Positions 7,537 to 35,168 of a stretch of 64,000 bases of DNA are shown in pieces. The stretch covers positions 124,001 to 188,000 of the forward strand of contig JAAVVG010000019.1 in assembly GCA_012976225.1 (NCBI GenBank). Reading direction: 5' to 3'. The translations under genes were made by a program, and so were the position numbers. The notes below the pieces were generated by a model that saw only the letters and a program-made list of their open reading frames with translations, was not told where the DNA came from and ran no database searches. How positions within the stretch are numbered: the first letter of the stretch is position 1; every line of letters begins with the position of its first letter. The DNA is from Golubevia sp. BC0850 (lineage: Eukaryota; Basidiomycota; Exobasidiomycetes; Golubeviales; Golubeviaceae).

Positions 7537-8004
7537 TCGACAACACGCTGGGCATGGAGTGTGCTCTCAGATATGCTATGGAGCTCAAAAGATCGGCCAG
7601 AATATCAGATATGTGGCCAGCCCAGCCGCAGGTTGAACAAACTGGTGACTGCGAGTTGACTCTTGTTCTCTCGGGCTCTGTTCGACCCTCCAGGACTTGT
7701 AAAGTTGGAATCTCTTTCTGATAGAAAGCAAAGAACTCGAAGTTCTTCAGAGAGGGAAGAAGAACTGGACCAAATGGAGATCTTCACCTCAGCTTTACAG
7801 GTCACGTTTTGCTAAGACCGTTGTCTCTGCGCTCCCACCAACTATTGTAATGTTGATTCGACGCCCTGGAGATCTTCTCCTGAACAGCACCTTATGCGAC
7901 TTGAGTTGGCCGCCTGAGATTGAATTTTCGATGCTACGTACAATACGAGTTGGGAAGAGATCTTCGAGTCCCTGCTCCTTCTTTCCACATACATCCAATA
8001 CATC
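7537..8004. other. Divergent promoter region, aminotransferase / secreted gene A
   Basis: No supported gene is found here. The stretch holds upstream sequence for the aminotransferase (-) and for secreted gene A (+), including the GGCCGCC element at 7908-7924 listed separately. Confidence 0.5.
7908..7924 (+). promoter_or_regulatory. Shared GGCCGCC element, copy upstream of gene A
   Basis: The sequence GGCCGCCTGAGATTGAA begins 97 bases before the gene A start codon. Near-identical copies sit at almost the same distance before genes B and C, which suggests a common binding site or a duplicated core promoter element. Confidence 0.6.
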
Positions 8005-8705
8005 ATGAGATTCCTCCCTCTTCTACCAAATTTTCTCATTTTCACTTCTTTGGCATTGGCTGCACCTCAAGCTGAAGTCACTCCCATCACGACTCAGTGT
8101 AAGTTCCAATGCAGTGACAGACCGAGAATCAACTCATCAACCTCTCACTCTCCTGTTTCCCTCAGATGACACTGGTCTAAGACTCGATGGTCAACCTGTC
8201 TACTTATCCGTCGATGCCATCGGAGAGCTCAGAAAAGCAGCCGAAGAAGGAAAGAACATCGAATCACTGGCTTCTGTTCGAGCTGACAGTGAACATGTTT
8301 CATTTTTCTCGGTGTTGGAACAAGATCTGAGCAACACTTGGAACTCATCTGCAAGTGGCAGTTATATCCATGAAGGTTATTCGATCTACAGTGAAGTTGC
8401 TAGTATTGCCCGGCAAACGTGAGTTGGTGACAGACAAAGACAAGCACAGAATGAGCTTCTCACTTTTTACCCCTTGTCTCTTCCACAGTGATTCGGAGGC
8501 TTACAGAAGCCTGGGCGCTTCTTATACATCTGATGTAGTTTCGAGCATTTCGACCTTCTACGCAGCAGAGACTGGATCAAATCTGACTTCCGTTGAGATC
8601 GAATCTCAATTCGAAGTCGAGGACGAAGGCTCTGCTTTGAGGTTTCAAATCCCAGTTCTCGTTCTTCTGTTGTCCACCTTTATGGGTGCTTCAATGGTTT
8701 TGTAA
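8005..8705 (+). CDS. Small secreted protein, tandem paralogue A, putative GPI-type tail
   Basis: Three exons (8005-8098, 8166-8418, 8489-8705) encode about 187 residues. The N-terminus is a clear signal peptide ending in LALAAPQAEVTP. The mature part opens with YDTGLRLDG, then an AIGELRKAAEEGKNIESLAS helix, and IYSEVASIA at the end of exon 2; exon 3 starts DSEAYRSLGASYT. The C-terminus is a 20-residue hydrophobic stretch ending ASMVL, like a GPI-attachment or membrane tail. Introns have phase 1 and phase 2, exactly as in B and C downstream. I recognise no known family or catalytic motif and there are almost no cysteines in the mature part, unlike many effectors or hydrophobins. A wall- or membrane-anchored surface protein is an inference from the two hydrophobic ends. 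Confidence 0.82.
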
Positions 8706-9148
8706 TTTGCAGCTGTTCCCACTTGAGGAAGTTGACTGTTTCTGACTTTCAAGAGGCAACCTTCCCGTCGACATGACTGACTACTTTAGACTGCGAACCA
8801 GAGGGCAGAGACCTCTTCCCTCTGCTACTCAAAGAAAAGGTTCCGCGGAATGTAAGGGCAAGGAGAATGCTAAGAACTTTGAGATGCGAAAATCTACGCC
8901 CCTACCACCGTTTGAGCCCTGAAGTCAGCTGTCCCTATGCGCCCATGTACTATACATACCTGGGTAGATGTGCACACAGATCTTTCTCAGATTGAGATTT
9001 CAGATCTCAGATGGTTCTCCCTAGCTGAACTAGATCGTTGGCCGCCGGAGATTGAAGTTCCCCTCTAGATACAAGGCCGGTGGTGAGAAAGGCTTTAAAA
9101 GGAAGGTCGAGGTTCTTCCTTCCTTCTAACCCTCTCACCCCATCACCA
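8706..9148. other. Intergenic A-B with promoter of gene B
   Basis: No gene is supported. The region carries the GGCCGCC element at 9040-9056 and a TTTAAAA stretch near 9093-9099, about 50 bases before the gene B start codon, which could serve as a TATA element. Confidence 0.5.
9040..9056 (+). promoter_or_regulatory. Shared GGCCGCC element, copy upstream of gene B
   Basis: GGCCGCCGGAGATTGAA begins 109 bases before the gene B start codon and differs from the gene A copy at a single base. Confidence 0.6.
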
Positions 9149-9915
9149 ATGAGAATCCAAGGCATTTCTCTCTATCTCTCTCTCAGTACTGCCATGCTGG
9201 TAGCTGGTGCACCTCAAGCTCAAATCACCCCGCTTCCAACCAAATGTAAGTCTAAAGCCTAATTGTTCTCCCCTGAAAGGTCAAGCTGAAACGCTCTCTT
9301 GTCTTCTCTCAGATGACACCGGAATTAATGTGGCTGGTGAAGAGATTGTTCTCACAGAAGACGCTCTAGGCGCCTTGAAGCAAGCAGCTGAAGAAGGCAA
9401 AAAAGTAGAATCGTTAGCCTCAGATCTTGCATCTGCGAATCACGTCTCTTACCTCTCTCAGTATAATAGCGACCTTTCAAGCTACACCACAATCAGGGGT
9501 TGGGAATCTAGGAGTCTTTTGTCCCAGGGATATGAATTCTACGACGGTTTGGCTAGTATAGCCAGGGAAAGGTTAGTTTGGACAAGTTCGAGGTACCTTC
9601 TCCATGTTCCAAATTGATTCACCAAGCTCTTTCGTTTGTCATTCCTTCATCTGCAGCGACCCAGAGGAATATTCACGGAAAGGAGCTGAGTTCACCGCGT
9701 CTTTCGTATCAAGCTTATCACAGTACTACGCCTCGATTGCAACGTTCGTATTTGAGTCGTCTGGTGAAGCTCAGCCGACCCAGAATCAGGAGGAAGAGCA
9801 AGATGTGAATTCGAGTGGGATTCAGAACGAGGAGCAAGACTCGTCTCTCAAATTCCAGGCTCCAATTTTGATGTTGCTTTTGTCGACAATCCTAGGCGCG
9901 TTGATGGTTTTGTAA
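9149..9915 (+). CDS. Small secreted protein, tandem paralogue B, putative GPI-type tail
   Basis: Three exons (9149-9245, 9313-9571, 9657-9915) encode about 204 residues. A signal peptide ends near VAGAPQAQITP, followed by YDTGINVAG and the helix ALGALKQAAEEGKKVESLAS shared with A and C. Exon 3 starts with SDPEEY, the counterpart of TDSEAY in A. B is longer than its siblings because of a Gln/Glu-rich linker (roughly residues 160-180) before the hydrophobic tail ending LGALMVL. Intron phases (1, 2) match A and C. The second donor is GTTAGT. Function unknown; the linker plus tail would suit a protein displayed from the cell surface. Confidence 0.82.
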
Positions 9916-10391
9916 GAGGGTGATGCTTCTTGAATGAACGGAATGAGATCTGAGATCCACCTCCCTGCTGGCGATCGCTGTGAAGTGTTTGTTTACCCCT
10001 TTTTGAGGAAAGAGTTGTTTCGAGTCTCTCTCTTCTATGTGGGTACACACTGCGTTTAGCTAAAGGTCGTTCGAAGGGCTCTATCTCTCTTCACGGATTC
10101 AAGAGGACATTGGTGTTGATACCGATTTTGTGAGCCAAGACCTAAGACCTTTGGCCGCCCGCGCGCGCCAACGCAGCGACCCCTGGATTTTCAAGATCCA
10201 AGGTCCACTTGTGTAGCCTCTTTCGATCTGAGGTAGGCGTATGCATATACATGTACTGTATGTACATGGTTCCTTTCGATCACAACTCCTTAGGCCGCCT
10301 GAGATCGAATTCCTCAATGGTCAGGTAGTTTCAAGGGAAGTCTCATTTTGCCTCGAATCTCCCTCTTCCCATTCCTTCCTCATCTCTCAAC
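9916..10391. other. Intergenic B-C with promoter of gene C
   Basis: No gene is supported. The region holds a GC-rich alternating purine/pyrimidine patch with a partial GGCCGCC at 10153-10159 and the full shared element at 10293-10309. Confidence 0.5.
10293..10309 (+). promoter_or_regulatory. Shared GGCCGCC element, copy upstream of gene C
   Basis: GGCCGCCTGAGATCGAA begins 99 bases before the gene C start codon and differs from the gene A copy at one base. Confidence 0.6.
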
Positions 10392-11110
10392 ATGAGGTTC
10401 TGTATCACTCTAACCACATTTCTCTTTGCTTGTTTAGCAGTAGCTGTCCCTCAAGCCGAAGTTACTCCATTCTCAATCCGATGTGAGTCACAGCGAGCTA
10501 ATCCCCACGCTTTACCAATCAGACTGACTCTCACCTCTGTTTCAACAGACGACACAGGTCTTAGAGTAGATGGAGATCCAATCTATCTCACGGAGGACAG
10601 AATCGGTCCCCTCAGACAGGCTGAAGAAGAAAAGATCGAATCTTTGGCCTCAACCTTGGCCTCTCAAGATGCAGCCGCATACATTTCTGAACAGAGATTC
10701 AATGGAGGACTCGATCCAATGGGAGCCATTAGTGTCTTTTCGAGAAAGTATACGGAGTATGACGTTTACGCCAGTATTGCCGCTGAAACGTAAGTCTGAA
10801 AGGGAAAGGTTCAATCGTTCGCGGAGCGTCTTTTGCATCGTCTCACACCTGCTTTATCCATTTCATACTACTCCGCAGAGATTCCGATGCCTACAGAAGC
10901 TTAGGGGCAGCCTACACTGCCTCCCTGGTATCTGTGAGGTCTGCCTTTTATGCAACGAAGACTGGGGTGGAGTTTACCACCGTTTCGATTGAACCTCAGT
11001 ATGAAGATGAGTCCGAAGAAGGAGAGGATAGCAATACTTCGATGCGATCTCATACGTCACAGGTACTTTGTTTGGCCGCTTCACTAATGGTAGGCTGGTT
11101 GGTGTTGTGA
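10392..11110 (+). CDS. Small secreted protein, tandem paralogue C
   Basis: Three exons (10392-10482, 10549-10789, 10879-11110) encode about 187 residues. The signal peptide ends near VAVPQAEVTP, very close to A. The mature core has YDTGLRVDG, the shortened helix RIGPLRQAEEEKIESLAS, and exon 3 beginning TDSDAYRSLGAAYT. The C-terminal hydrophobic stretch (CLAASLMVGWLVL) is shorter and less regular than in A and B, so anchoring may be weaker. The exon lengths and phases make common descent by tandem duplication nearly certain. A and C look closer to each other in exon 3 than to B. Confidence 0.8.
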
Positions 11111-20390: not shown

Positions 20391-23316
20391 TCAGAGACAA
20401 TCAAAGCTCTCCCAGGCTTGAGTCCCGTTTATCTCTCCTCCTCTGTAAACCTCCTTCTTTGGATAAGGACAGATCTTACGAGTGAGAGTCACTCCATACT
20501 TGTTGGATTGAAAGACGGTTGAAAGGGAGTCCAAGTCTGAAGCTCCAATGCTAGAGGACCTAGGTAGAACCTTCTCTCTTGAGTTGTAGCCTACTCCGAT
20601 CTGGAAGTCAGGAGCTTCGTTACGTTCGGCCCAAGCTACGAGAGAAAGGATGATGTCATGTTTGGAATCCCATTTGAGGGGACGATTTCCTGGATCCTGC
20701 GTGAGAGAAGAGATAAGTCAGTGGCGGTGTTGTTGTCGAGTTCGCGTCGATCTCAACTCACATTTTGAGTGACCGAACCAAAGTGCCAAGCTCCAGGTCC
20801 ATCACGACAGTGATTCATTCCAGGGATTGGAAAGAAGCGATATCCGTCTGAAACCTCTCCACTGATCAGGTTTGGAGAGCTCGCCTCGACAGTCAGATTG
20901 TGAAATCTCATAGAGGCGACCGGGCTGACAGTGATGTCGCTGAGTCCATGGTAGTGAATCTGAGGACAGTTGGAGGAAGAGAAAAGTCGAGAACATCAGA
21001 AAGATAGAACACGAGGAAGGAGAAAGCAGAGAAAGCAGCGTCTGAGTCGGAAAGATTTCGACTCACCAGCTTCTTTCCAGCGTTCAAGAAAGGAGAGATA
21101 TCAGCAACATCCTGATTGCTGCCACTTGGATTCTCACGCTCTCCTAGTAGAACGGTACCGAGAGTGAAGTTGTTGTAGACGTCATAACCAGGGTCAAGCT
21201 CTTGGTATCGGAGGATAGCCAGTTGTGTATATTGACTCGATTTCGAAGCTGTTCCTGACAAAGTCAGAACTTGAGATTCCAATCCTGGAAGGTAGCGGTC
21301 GTAGACGAAGGTTCCATTGAGCACAGTAGGTTCATAGATCGTCTTGAGATTGTCGATTCTGAAGGGAGGGTGGAAGGGGAGAAAAGGGGAGAGTGAAAGG
21401 AAAAGCTCGAGTCAGAGGAATGTTGGAGAGACGATGCATTTTATAAACTTACTGAGCTTGAGTCATGCAAGTCTTAGAGGACCCTCCAAACATCGAGTCA
21501 GGGGAGCCACAGAGAAGCTCCTCTTCGAATCGAGGCTTGCACTGAGTTGCATCGACGATGATACCATCTTTGACTCCATCGAGCGCATCACATTGCTTGA
21601 GAATGGTTTGATGAATAGCTCCTGGCATCAACGTGATATTGAAGAAGCCTTGACCAGCGGAGCTTTGACGGTGAACGACTTGAGTGTGGACCTGGCCTCG
21701 ATTAAGTCTGTTGAAGAGGAGGGTAGGAGAGCCAACGATCACTCCATCGAAGTCGTCAAAGTGCTCTGTAACGCTTCCAAAGCTCTGTTTCCCTCCTGCC
21801 GAGCACCCTGCTAGGTAGGCTCTGATACGACTCTCTGACTGAACGGTGTTGACTCCTAGCTTCTTCTTGTCTCCAGTCTCCTTGACTCGAGCTCCAGCTT
21901 CGTTTCCGTAGAAAAGATTGATGACTTCTTCAGCTGCCACCTTGCTGACGTGAGAAGCACGAGAGGACCAATCTAAAAGAGAGTTGAAGTAGTGCTCGTC
22001 AGTTCCGTTGACCCAGGTAGACGATCCGGCAGTCGAGAAGTGACCAGCGTTAGAAGCGGCGACGGCGAATCGGTGGCGGCTCATTTGCTGTTTCATGTCC
22101 GGTAGAGGAACAAATCCTCTGTCCCAAGAGATAGTGGCGGGGTTTGGAGATTCGTCAGCGACTTCCTTTGCCTGGCGCCATCTCAGCTTCCAATTCAGTA
22201 CTCACCTCTGACCGCCATTGTTGATGTAAAGAAGTCTCTTGTTCCATCCAGAAGAGGAGCCAAGAAGTTCTTCTCCAGAGATAGAACCGTCTGAGCGCTT
22301 TTCGAAATTACCGGCAGAGACGAGAGAGGAGCGTTTTGAAGAACTAGGATTGGAGGCGATCAAGTCAGGGGGGCCTTTGAGATAGGATCCATCCGTGGCT
22401 AGTTCGATGGGGGTCGAGTCAGTTGGGTAGTCGGTAGAATTGGTATACGCCAGATCGATAGAAGGATCAGAGATGAGAGGAAGCCAGACTTCAAACAGAA
22501 CTGAAGTCGATTTGGATGTGGCGATCGACCCTCCCAGACGACAGAACGCTGGAAGTCCTCCAAGCGGACCGTGTTGAGCTTCTCTTCCCTGTGGCATGGA
22601 GAATTGCAGAGAGAAAGAAATTTTGGAGAAGTCAGGGGCGAACAGAAAAGGTAGATCGCTTTATCTTCTCTCTGTTTCTTACCTGTAGGCCGTAAGAAGA
22701 GTCTTGAGTGATGTCGATGTCAGGTCCTACCGAACTCAAGATAGTCTGAATGAACAGCTGATGAGTCAGTATCAGCTCGAATTCGAATATGCTTTGCAAC
22801 TTCTATCTCTTGCGGACACTAACCGGTACGTCCGTGCCAGCGGGAATGACACCTGGCGGATAGGTTGCAGAGAGCAGCTCCAAGCTTGGATTAGACCCTT
22901 CAGGATAGTACTACCAGAAGTTAAAGAGGAAAAATGAACAGAAGAGAGGAGAGTCTTTTCAGCAAATGTCTTTTGACAAGAGGGGCGAGGTTTTGCAAAC
23001 TCACCTGTCCGAAAATCTTGCTGATGTTTTGAGAGGCGAGAACTTCAAAATTCTCGCCAATCCAAGAACACAGCTTTGAAGAATAAGAGCCAGCTTTAGT
23101 TGCACCTCCCTTGGGTTTGAAGTCGGAGATGGAGAGGGTGTCGTATGGCAATCCGTTGAAAGGGGTAGCGGAAGAACCACTGGAAGTGCTACGTGCGATG
23201 AATCCTTGATTTGATTGAGGATTTGAGATGAAATTAGATTGATCTTGAGATTGTGAAATCGGAGAAGCAATTGCTATAAAAGAGATAATGGAGAGAAGAG
23301 AGAGTAGAGATCTCAT
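20391..23316 (-). CDS. Secreted tannase / feruloyl esterase family protein
   Basis: The enzyme cleaves ester bonds of plant phenolics such as gallotannins or feruloyl esters outside the cell. Eight exons on the minus strand (23316-23005, 22910-22824, 22745-22683, 22588-22206, 22118-21453, 21358-21067, 20959-20762, 20696-20391) give about 768 residues, longer than usual. A signal peptide begins MRSLLSLLSIISFIAIASP. Family marks: YYPEGSNPSLE, YGREAQHGPLGG-type segment, YINNGGQRG, the nucleophile elbow GCSAGGKQ, the Asp in HGLSDITVSP, and PGMNHCRDGPGA. This gives the CS-D-HC arrangement, with Cys next to the catalytic Ser and His, that defines the family. The substrate cannot be told from sequence. 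The gene suggests a plant-associated or plant-litter life style. Confidence 0.92.
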
Positions 23317-23639
23317 GGCGGATGAGGGAACTTCGATGAAAGATTGGAATCTATCGACGTTATATACCCTACTTGAGGCAAAAGGAGTGAAATCTAGGAT
23401 TCTAAAAGGGGATGGATGTCGAAGAAAGAAAGAAAGGAAAGATGAAGAAAGAAGGAGTGGAGTATAGTGGAGTGGTGAAGAAGAGAGAGGGAAAGAATTT
23501 TGTCCACCGAGTTCGAGGAGTGCACGATGATATACTGAGCGGATGAAGACAAATGTATATCTCCCTACTCTTTCTACTAACACACCAAAGCAGCCGCTCA
23601 ACTCCCCAACCTGGCCTTCTTCTCGTCATTTACTTTTTC
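23317..23639. promoter_or_regulatory. Tannase promoter with TATA box
   Basis: A minus-strand TATATAA at 23360-23366 lies 44-50 bases before the tannase start codon. The rest of this 323-base stretch also serves as the 3' flank of IML1. Confidence 0.5.
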
Positions 23640-33431: not shown

Positions 33432-35168
33432 ATGAGCAGCACCTATGCTGACTGGTTCAACCAGAACAGACCATCAACAGCATCCTCAAGCTCAAATCCA
33501 GTTAGATTAACAATTCAAAAAGGAGATTACATTGTCGATTCAGATGGCAACTTCACTTATGAAGAGAGATGGGAGTCAGAAGAGATTATGGAGATGGATC
33601 AATCTTTTACAGATCAGGATCGGGATCAGGATGCTACTTACCCCGATCCAAATCTAAAGATTGAAAACGATTTATACTTGAACGGAAATTGGAAAGGAAA
33701 AGGGAAACAGAGAGGCAGTCTTACTGGAGACCAAGCTCAGATCGAATCGGAAGCTTCAGAGGATTCTACTTTTGGAAGGTTAGCGATAGGCGAAGGTGTC
33801 TTGCACACTTGGAGTGGTAAACCTGCTTTACTCGTGATCGATACGTGAGTATAGTCAGAGGTTGAATAGGGTTCAGGGAGCTGAAGAAGAAGAGGAGGCC
33901 ACACTTTAGCTTGATAGCTTGGACTGAAGCAACTTGCTTCCCCTCTTCTGACATCCTTTCCCCACTCATATTCTTCCCAAGAAATACTCTCATTTCAGCC
34001 TTACCCTTCTTCGAATCCCTCTTCGCACGTCTACTTTCACTCAACACTCGAGCCTCCACCTCCGAAATCTCTCCCTCTCCAATCACTCTGATCATCCCTT
34101 ACACCGTTCTCTTAGAATTAGACGGCCTCAAAACTTCTAATAGAGCTGGTATAGATGCTAGAAAAGCTAATCATTGGTTATTGGCTGCTTTGAAGACTCA
34201 GAAAAAGGTCTTCGTGAAGGTGGATCCGGGAGATGGGAATGGGATTAGAGAAATGAAACTGGATGAGGGTAGATGGGCTTTACATGTTCAGAATAGAAGT
34301 AACATGCAAGAAGTGATGAGGAATGTCGGAGATGCTGGAGCTGTGAGTTGACTAGCTTTTGGGAGATTCGAGACGAAAGCCTCTCTCTTTGCTTCCCTCA
34401 ATCACTGATGTTTGCTTTCTACCCCTTTCTCAGAGAAACGATGAAGACATCATTCATCTGTGTGGATTTCTTCATCGAACTTCTGGTCATGAAGTCTTTT
34501 TTCTTTCGAACGATACAAACGCAAGAACTTCCGCCGAAGTAGAAGGGATTCGAACGCTTTCCTTGACTACTTTGTTGGGTGGGAATAGCGCGGCTCAAGT
34601 CAATTCTGGAAGGTTTTCAGGAAATTCTAAAGAGTTGGGAAGGATCGTTGAGAATCTAGTTGAACAATGGGGATCTCAAATGGATGGTTGGATAGGCAGA
34701 AGGGAAGAAGAAGATCAATTCGACTCTAGAGAAAATGGAATGGTTGGTCTATTGGATCAAGATCAAGAGCAGTCTCAAGGAGATGATCAAGGAATGGAAA
34801 TCGATGAAGAGGAGTCGCAACATTCAAGTTCAAATCATCAATCTTTTAGCTTTTCCCCCACTTCTACAAGATCTTTGGATTTGAAACCAACTGGAACTTC
34901 AAGTAGCAAATATGCTCATCAAACTTTCACTTATTTTTCCCCTCCTTCGAATTCAAGATCCAATTCTTCATGGAGAAGTACTTCACCTTCTAGTCATCGT
35001 AACAGAGCTACTACGACAGCTCTTACTGGGTCTAATAGCATGCCACTTTCTAACAATCGATTTTTGGAAGGGAGTGGAGGTGACATGTATAGAAGGAAGA
35101 GTACGGAAAGCGGAAATGGGAGTGTGAGTGGGGAGAAGGGAGTGGGCGGGAGTAGGTGGGCTCATTGA
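33432..35168 (+). CDS. PIN-domain ribonuclease, Swt1-like
   Basis: Three exons (33432-33844, 33982-34342, 34434-35168) encode about 502 residues. The PIN domain runs from LLVIDTNTLIS at the first splice join through IPYTVLLELDGLK and ARKANHWLLAAL to EVFFLSNDTNARTSAEVEGI. The acidic residues in VIDTN, LELDGLK and LSNDTN are the metal-binding set of PIN nucleases. The layout and the ARxANxWL helix resemble Swt1, an endoribonuclease of nuclear mRNA quality control. The N-terminal 130 residues are acidic and low-complexity; the C-terminal 200 are Ser/Asn-rich. The Swt1 assignment is by motif resemblance; another PIN/PINc family is possible. Confidence 0.78.

What the first reader, a model, noticed from the sequence alone, without database searches (positions are those of the whole stretch)
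8005..11110. Tandem trio of paralogous secreted proteins of no recognised family
Three adjacent same-strand genes (A 187, B 204, C 187 residues) share a signal peptide ending in PQAxxTP, a YDTG opening, an acidic helix with SLAS, a TD/SDxxxYxxxG exon-3 start and a hydrophobic C-terminal tail. Introns fall at identical places with identical phases (1 then 2). Cysteines are nearly absent and no known domain is recognised. The sequence shows the duplication directly; surface anchoring is inferred from the two hydrophobic ends. This is the best candidate for an undescribed system in the window.
Basis: partly seen in the sequence, partly recalled or inferred. Interest (0 to 1): 0.75.

Follow-up and report, generated by a model that had tools for sequence, protein, structure and literature searches.

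The report
Three duplicated fungal cell-surface protein genes
Three neighbouring fungal genes, old copies of one another, encode small acidic secreted-type proteins with what looks like a membrane-anchor signal and share one conserved 17-letter DNA element in front of each gene; they match no described family in the libraries searched, so they look like a small, probably co-regulated surface-protein family of unproven function.

Summary
Genes A (8005-8705), B (9149-9915) and C (10392-11110) are clean three-exon models of 187, 204 and 187 aa, with GT..CAG introns at identical places and phases 1 and 2. Identity is 44-47% of aligned residues, far above 1000 shuffles per pair. Introns keep at most a faint resemblance; codon positions point to purifying selection.

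Two things are added. (1) Each gene has one GGCCGCC[T/G]GAGAT[T/C]GAA 97-109 nt before its ATG: 15 of 17 columns identical in all three, flanks 1-2 of 20, no other exact copy in 64 kb. (2) The C-termini fit a GPI signal: small trios GSA, DSS, NTS in one alignment column, then hydrophobic tails (simple rule, no predictor). PQAxxTP probably starts the mature chain rather than ending the signal peptide.

Pfam, NCBIfam, PHROGs, PDB sequences, viral contigs and prokaryote genomes gave nothing above chance level. No fungal proteomes could be searched, so "undescribed" is untested where it matters. Only exon 2 could be modelled, and poorly (pLDDT 47).

Best reading: a lineage-specific, probably co-regulated family of GPI-anchored acidic surface proteins, a familiar kind in fungi. 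The molecular role is a guess.

The parts
8005..8705 (+). Gene A: exons 8005-8098, 8166-8418, 8489-8705 (incl. stop); 187 aa, signal-type N-terminus, acidic Cys-free core, GPI-type tail
   Evidence: splice sites and homology to B and C
9149..9915 (+). Gene B: exons 9149-9245, 9313-9571, 9657-9915 (incl. stop); 204 aa, longer acidic linker before the tail
10392..11110 (+). Gene C: exons 10392-10482, 10549-10789, 10879-11110 (incl. stop); 187 aa, diverged tail
7908..7924 (+). Upstream element GGCCGCCTGAGATTGAA, first base 97 nt before the A start codon
9040..9056 (+). Upstream element GGCCGCCGGAGATTGAA, first base 109 nt before the B start codon
10293..10309 (+). Upstream element GGCCGCCTGAGATCGAA, first base 99 nt before the C start codon
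10153..10159 (+). Extra GGCCGCC half-element, 239 nt before the C start codon; the 4 exact GGCCGCC of the window (both strands) all lie upstream of A, B or C
8628..8702 (+). A C-terminal GPI-type signal: omega-like G163-S-A and hydrophobic tail
   Evidence: rule-based scan, not a trained predictor; it also offers D161; coordinates counted by hand from the exon model
9838..9912 (+). B C-terminal GPI-type signal: omega-like D180-S-S and hydrophobic tail
   Evidence: coordinates counted by hand from the exon model
11033..11107 (+). C C-terminal GPI-type signal: omega-like N163-T-S and hydrophobic tail
   Evidence: it also offers S162; coordinates counted by hand from the exon model

Best explanation
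A, B and C are an old local triplication of one gene in a fungus (probably a basidiomycete; species unknown). Each product enters the secretory pathway by its N-terminal signal, is trimmed before [AV]PQA, loses its last ~24 residues when a GPI anchor is added at the small-residue trio, and sits on the plasma membrane or is passed to the cell wall. A Cys-free acidic core of roughly 120-130 residues is then held off the anchor by an acidic linker. A shared promoter-proximal element binds one transcription factor, so the three are expressed as a set. The most likely role is a surface-coat or surface-contact protein (wall or partner binding by the conserved core), with the paralogues varying in linker length and in the variable second half of exon 2. 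Shown: the duplication, the splice structure by sequence, codon-level constraint and the conserved upstream element. Inferred: secretion, the GPI anchor, co-regulation. Guess: the binding or coat role.
For: Gene models and paralogy. Codon positions: position 3 most diverged; NG86 dN 0.47-0.64, with dS saturated in AB and AC and 4.2 in BC; LWL85 dS 2.8 (AC) and 1.8 (BC). Hydrophobic N-termini with ALA, VAG and AVA before [AV]PQA (sequence). Small trios GSA, DSS and NTS in one alignment column, 24 residues after the first of each, then hydrophobic tails (mean Kyte-Doolittle 1.95-2.46 over the last 17). Among 388 stop-to-stop ORF pieces of at least 60 aa the three C-termini rank 2nd, 3rd and 4th for tail hydrophobicity. 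Net charge -15 to -17 without the first and last 20 residues. Upstream element: best ungapped 17-mer triple 15/17 in the three 300-nt upstream regions, against at most 10 in 60 dinucleotide shuffles and at most 12 in 60 random real triples; flanks 1-2 of 20.
Against: No signal-peptide or GPI predictor was available; the omega rule is simple, was run on these three proteins only, and offers a second site in A and in C. A plain C-terminal membrane anchor is not excluded. The tail of C is diverged (AC 5/24, BC 4/24, against AB 16/24). No transcript evidence. The fold is unknown: exon-2 models have pLDDT 46.7 and 47.5. LWL85 failed for one pair and YN00 for all three. The element could act in the transcript's 5' UTR rather than as a promoter site, and its distribution outside this window is unknown. 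Nothing tests the proposed binding or coat role.
Confidence: 0.55

Rival explanations
1. Released, host- or competitor-directed secreted proteins (effector-like) in a duplicated cluster; the hydrophobic C-terminus is not a GPI signal or only a transient anchor.
For: Small, secretion-type, no known domain, tandem and diverged, variable linker. Species-specific families of small secreted proteins are described in a plant-associated fungus (PMC3192844, passages seen).
Against: A hydrophobic C-terminal tail with a small-residue trio at a constant distance is kept in all three, which free secretion would not require. dN is below dS where dS could be computed and core motifs are invariant, so there is no sign of positive selection. 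Neighbouring genes include housekeeping ones (IML1, ribonucleotide reductase large subunit, V-ATPase subunits, a DHR1-type helicase); the window was not scanned for repeats as a whole. Lifestyle of the organism unknown.
Confidence: 0.2
2. Single-pass membrane proteins: the C-terminal helix stays in the membrane, with the acidic core outside; no GPI.
For: Hydrophobic tails of about 17 residues or more.
Against: The chain ends inside the hydrophobic stretch, leaving no cytosolic tail or positive stop; small trios precede a short spacer in all three.
Confidence: 0.15
3. Members of a described fungal family (for example HsbA/Mp1p-type lipid-binding wall proteins, or another family in fungal proteomes) too diverged to be seen here.
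For: General likeness to secreted wall proteins with species-specific paralogue groups, noted for HsbA in some lineages (PMC5872309, passages seen). Only curated libraries, solved structures and non-fungal genomes were searched.
Against: 0 Pfam families at E up to 10 for each of the three proteins, though HMMER's filters drop most matches above about 0.1. The profile against the PDB gives one chance-level hit; that the PDB holds Mp1p domain structures is recalled, backed by a paper title in the reference list of PMC5488042.
Confidence: 0.15

Closest known systems
HsbA / Mp1p family (Pfam PF12296), cell-wall galactomannoproteins
   Same: Secreted fungal wall proteins that form species-specific paralogue groups in some lineages (PMC5872309 and PMC5488042, passages seen)
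   Different: No Pfam match at E up to 10 and no Mp1p-type chain among the PDB hits; fold not comparable here
DELD small secreted proteins of Piriformospora (Serendipita) indica
   Same: Species-specific family of small secreted proteins without known domain (PMC3192844, passages seen); C hits the PDB chain PIIN_05872 at a chance-level E of 0.54
   Different: DELD proteins are 101-135 aa, rich in His and Ala, and end in RSIDELD; A-C are 187-204 aa, acidic, and end in a hydrophobic tail. A and B do not list that chain
Generic tandem arrays of fungal secreted-protein genes
   Same: Local duplication of a small secreted-type gene with kept intron positions
   Different: A conserved 17-nt upstream element and GPI-type tails kept in all copies (whether this is unusual is own judgement, not tested)

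Membership tests
GPI-anchored fungal surface proteins | N-terminal signal peptide | tested here: inconclusive
   Hydrophobic N-termini with ALA, VAG and AVA before [AV]PQA seen directly; no trained predictor
GPI-anchored fungal surface proteins | Small-residue omega trio, spacer, hydrophobic tail to the C-terminus | tested here: met
   GSA, DSS and NTS, each with 24 residues after the first; tails KD 1.95-2.46 (simple recalled rule, no control proteins, second candidate site in A and C)
GPI-anchored fungal surface proteins | Actual lipid anchor | not testable with these tools
   Needs biochemistry
HsbA/Mp1p (PF12296) | Match to the PF12296 profile | tested here: not met
   0 of 3 proteins, E up to 10
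HsbA/Mp1p (PF12296) | Helical-bundle fold (recalled) | tested here: inconclusive
   Exon 2 alone, pLDDT 46.7 and 47.5
DELD family | C-terminal RSIDELD and His/Ala-rich body | tested here: not met
   A, B and C end in SMVL, LMVL and WLVL; definition from PMC3192844 (passages)
Cytochrome c1-derived protein | CxxCH haem motif and profile similarity | tested here: not met
   A alone lists cytochrome c1 chains (8 of 10 hits, best E 0.79; 16 of 16 hits of a chosen 60-aa piece, best E 0.35); B, C and the three-sequence profile list none; no cysteine in the core

The most novel reading that the evidence does not exclude
An undescribed fungal surface-protein family with its own fold, switched on as a set by a dedicated transcription factor through the 17-nt element, forming an acidic coat at one life stage.
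Probability: 0.2. Interest if true: 0.5.

Novelty: new member of a known kind. Interest (0 to 1): 0.33.

Why it matters
Many fungal surface proteins have no recognised domain (general knowledge). A compact three-gene array with kept splice structure, kept anchor-type signal and a sharply conserved upstream element gives a ready handle. The element can be used to look for the rest of a regulon, and the three diverged copies can seed a profile for the family. If the family proves widespread it would define a new domain; if confined to one lineage it is one more orphan surface family.

Tried and rejected
Cytochrome c1 origin: A shows a stretch like the region around the haem motif of cytochrome c1 (8 of 10 hits of whole A, best E 0.79; 16 of 16 hits of a 60-aa piece chosen afterwards, best E 0.35). 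Rejected because B, C and the profile list no such chain, Pfam shows nothing and CxxCH is absent.

Bacterial, archaeal or viral relatives: none of the pattern matches was confirmed as a relative (47 and 60 stretches in viral contigs; 54 and 200 in prokaryote genomes). One pattern spanned an intron boundary, so searches used exon 2 only. NCBIfam: 1 of 3 members matched one ribosomal-protein model at E 0.011; PHROGs: five families, each matched by 1 of 3 members, best E 0.053; taken as chance.

More copies in the window: none by element or profile (8 ORF pieces above threshold, all from A-C, next E 0.48). The same call's permissive tblastn gave weak extra matches, best E 0.014 for C at 34476-34646 (inside the ORF 34356-35168 that has a PIN-domain match), taken as chance.

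Amphipathic helices: maximal moments (0.54, 0.53, 0.44) do not exceed shuffled means (0.55, 0.54, 0.59), so the 'acidic helix' is unproven.

Introns: in all six pairwise comparisons the score lies above the shuffle mean and 13 to 85 of 500 shuffles reach it, so a faint residual or compositional likeness remains.

No tRNA or Rfam hit at gathering score in the window. No fold search was run because the models were too poor. Ten paper searches (listings with starts of abstracts) showed no description of this family; they cannot show that none exists. Passages of three papers were seen.

Full report
What was checked. The three genes exist as described. Splicing the window at GT..CAG sites gives A 187 aa, B 204 aa and C 187 aa, each with introns of phase 1 and phase 2 at the same places. 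Pairwise local scores (357, 352, 270) far exceed the best of 1000 shuffles per pair (74, 63, 61); identities are 80/172, 86/182 and 75/172, and the part from YDTG to 25 residues before the end gives 52/111, 64/127 and 60/128. A three-sequence profile run on 1959 stop-to-stop ORF pieces of at least 20 aa finds eight above threshold, all from A, B and C; the next is E 0.48. A permissive tblastn in the same script gives weak further matches, the best E 0.014 for C at 34476-34646, which I take as chance. So three copies are seen in this window. The likeness among them is not chance.

Coding status. Identity is 52-58% at first, 63-70% at second and 32-36% at third codon positions. NG86 dN is 0.47-0.64, with dS saturated in AB and AC and 4.2 in BC; LWL85 gives dS 2.8 (AC) and 1.8 (BC) and failed for AB; YN00 failed for all three. 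The duplications look old and the proteins constrained. C's intron 1 is 66 nt, in frame and open, so an isoform with 22 extra residues is possible.

Anatomy. Each protein begins with a hydrophobic stretch, with ALA, VAG and AVA before [AV]PQA[EQ][VI]TP, which is therefore likelier the start of the mature chain than the end of the signal. The mature part has no cysteine, and without the first and last 20 residues the net charge is -16, -17 and -15. The best-kept part is YDTG...ESLAS (AB 21/37, AC 25/35, BC 23/35); a second kept part spans the exon 2/3 border (ASIA...[TS]DxxxYxxxGAxxT). Between core and tail lies an acidic linker, longest in B. Near the end a trio of small residues (GSA in A, DSS in B, NTS in C) stands at one alignment column, with 22 residues after each trio, ending in a hydrophobic stretch. 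That is the layout of a GPI-attachment signal (rule recalled; no predictor and no control proteins were run; the scan also offers D161 in A and S162 in C). A and B share 16/24 tail residues while C shares 5/24 and 4/24, yet C keeps the layout.

Upstream element. A search for the best ungapped 17-mer triple in the three 300-nt upstream regions finds this element with 15 of 17 columns identical. Sixty dinucleotide shuffles reach at most 10, and sixty random triples of real window DNA reach at most 12. The length 17 was chosen after the element had been seen; lengths 12 and 20 find the same place with 11/12 and 16/20, against shuffle maxima of 9 and 11. The four 20-base blocks around it share only 1-2 columns each. 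There is no other exact copy in 64 kb; one further match has three mismatches. That scan's chance count (mean 1.02) is not an independent test, because the pattern was taken from these genes. The four exact GGCCGCC in the window all lie in these upstream regions (mean 0.96 expected, 2 of 100 shuffles reach four). With synonymous sites near saturation, such conservation points to function, most simply a shared transcription-factor site.

Relatives. No Pfam family at E up to 10 for any of the three. NCBIfam (best E 0.011, one member) and PHROGs (best E 0.053, one member each) give hits that I take as chance. Against PDB sequences the profile gives one hit at E 1.2, A gives 10 at E 0.7-2.1, of which 8 are cytochrome c1 chains, C gives 4 at E 0.53-1.2 and B gives none. 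Viral and prokaryotic collections gave no confirmed relative. Fungal proteomes were not available, so the absence of known relatives is established only for curated families, solved structures and non-fungal genomes.

Host genome. Of 18 long ORF pieces scanned, 14 match Pfam at E up to 0.01. Among them are a histone deacetylase, a kelch protein, a squalene/phytoene-synthase-like protein, V-ATPase subunits, a tannase/feruloyl esterase, IML1 (with the fungal N-terminal domain), the large ribonucleotide reductase subunit, an F-box protein, a DHR1-type helicase and, below Pfam's cut-off, an SMC hinge; searches confirm the reductase and the helicase. G+C is 44.7%. Basidiomycete origin is an inference from general gene style; the species was not identified and no whole genome is held.

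Structure. The single-sequence and three-sequence runs gave pLDDT 46.7 and 47.5, so no fold is claimed and no fold search was made. Helical moments do not exceed shuffles.

Verdict. This is a real, old, intact-looking tandem trio of small acidic secretion-type proteins with a GPI-like C-terminus and a shared conserved upstream element. The best reading is a lineage-specific, co-regulated surface-protein family. In kind it is familiar in fungi; in sequence it is unmatched by what could be searched. The upstream element is the most useful new fact.

Noticed in passing
window 7908-7924, 9040-9056, 10293-10309: A conserved 17-nt element upstream of each of the three genes, not mentioned in the finding.
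   Followed up: yes
window 10483-10548: Intron 1 of gene C is 66 nt, in frame and without a stop; a retained-intron isoform with 22 extra residues is possible.
   Followed up: partly
window 8628-8702 and 9838-9912: A resembles C in the exon-3 core (24/41, against 15/40 with B) but B in the C-terminal tail (16/24, against 5/24 with C), which suggests either fast change in the C tail or old gene conversion.
   Followed up: partly
window 21452-22201 (-), with ORFs up to 23625: A tannase/feruloyl-esterase match. An upstream same-strand ORF (22921-23625) holds a secretion-type N-terminus that may belong to the same gene (by eye).
   Followed up: no
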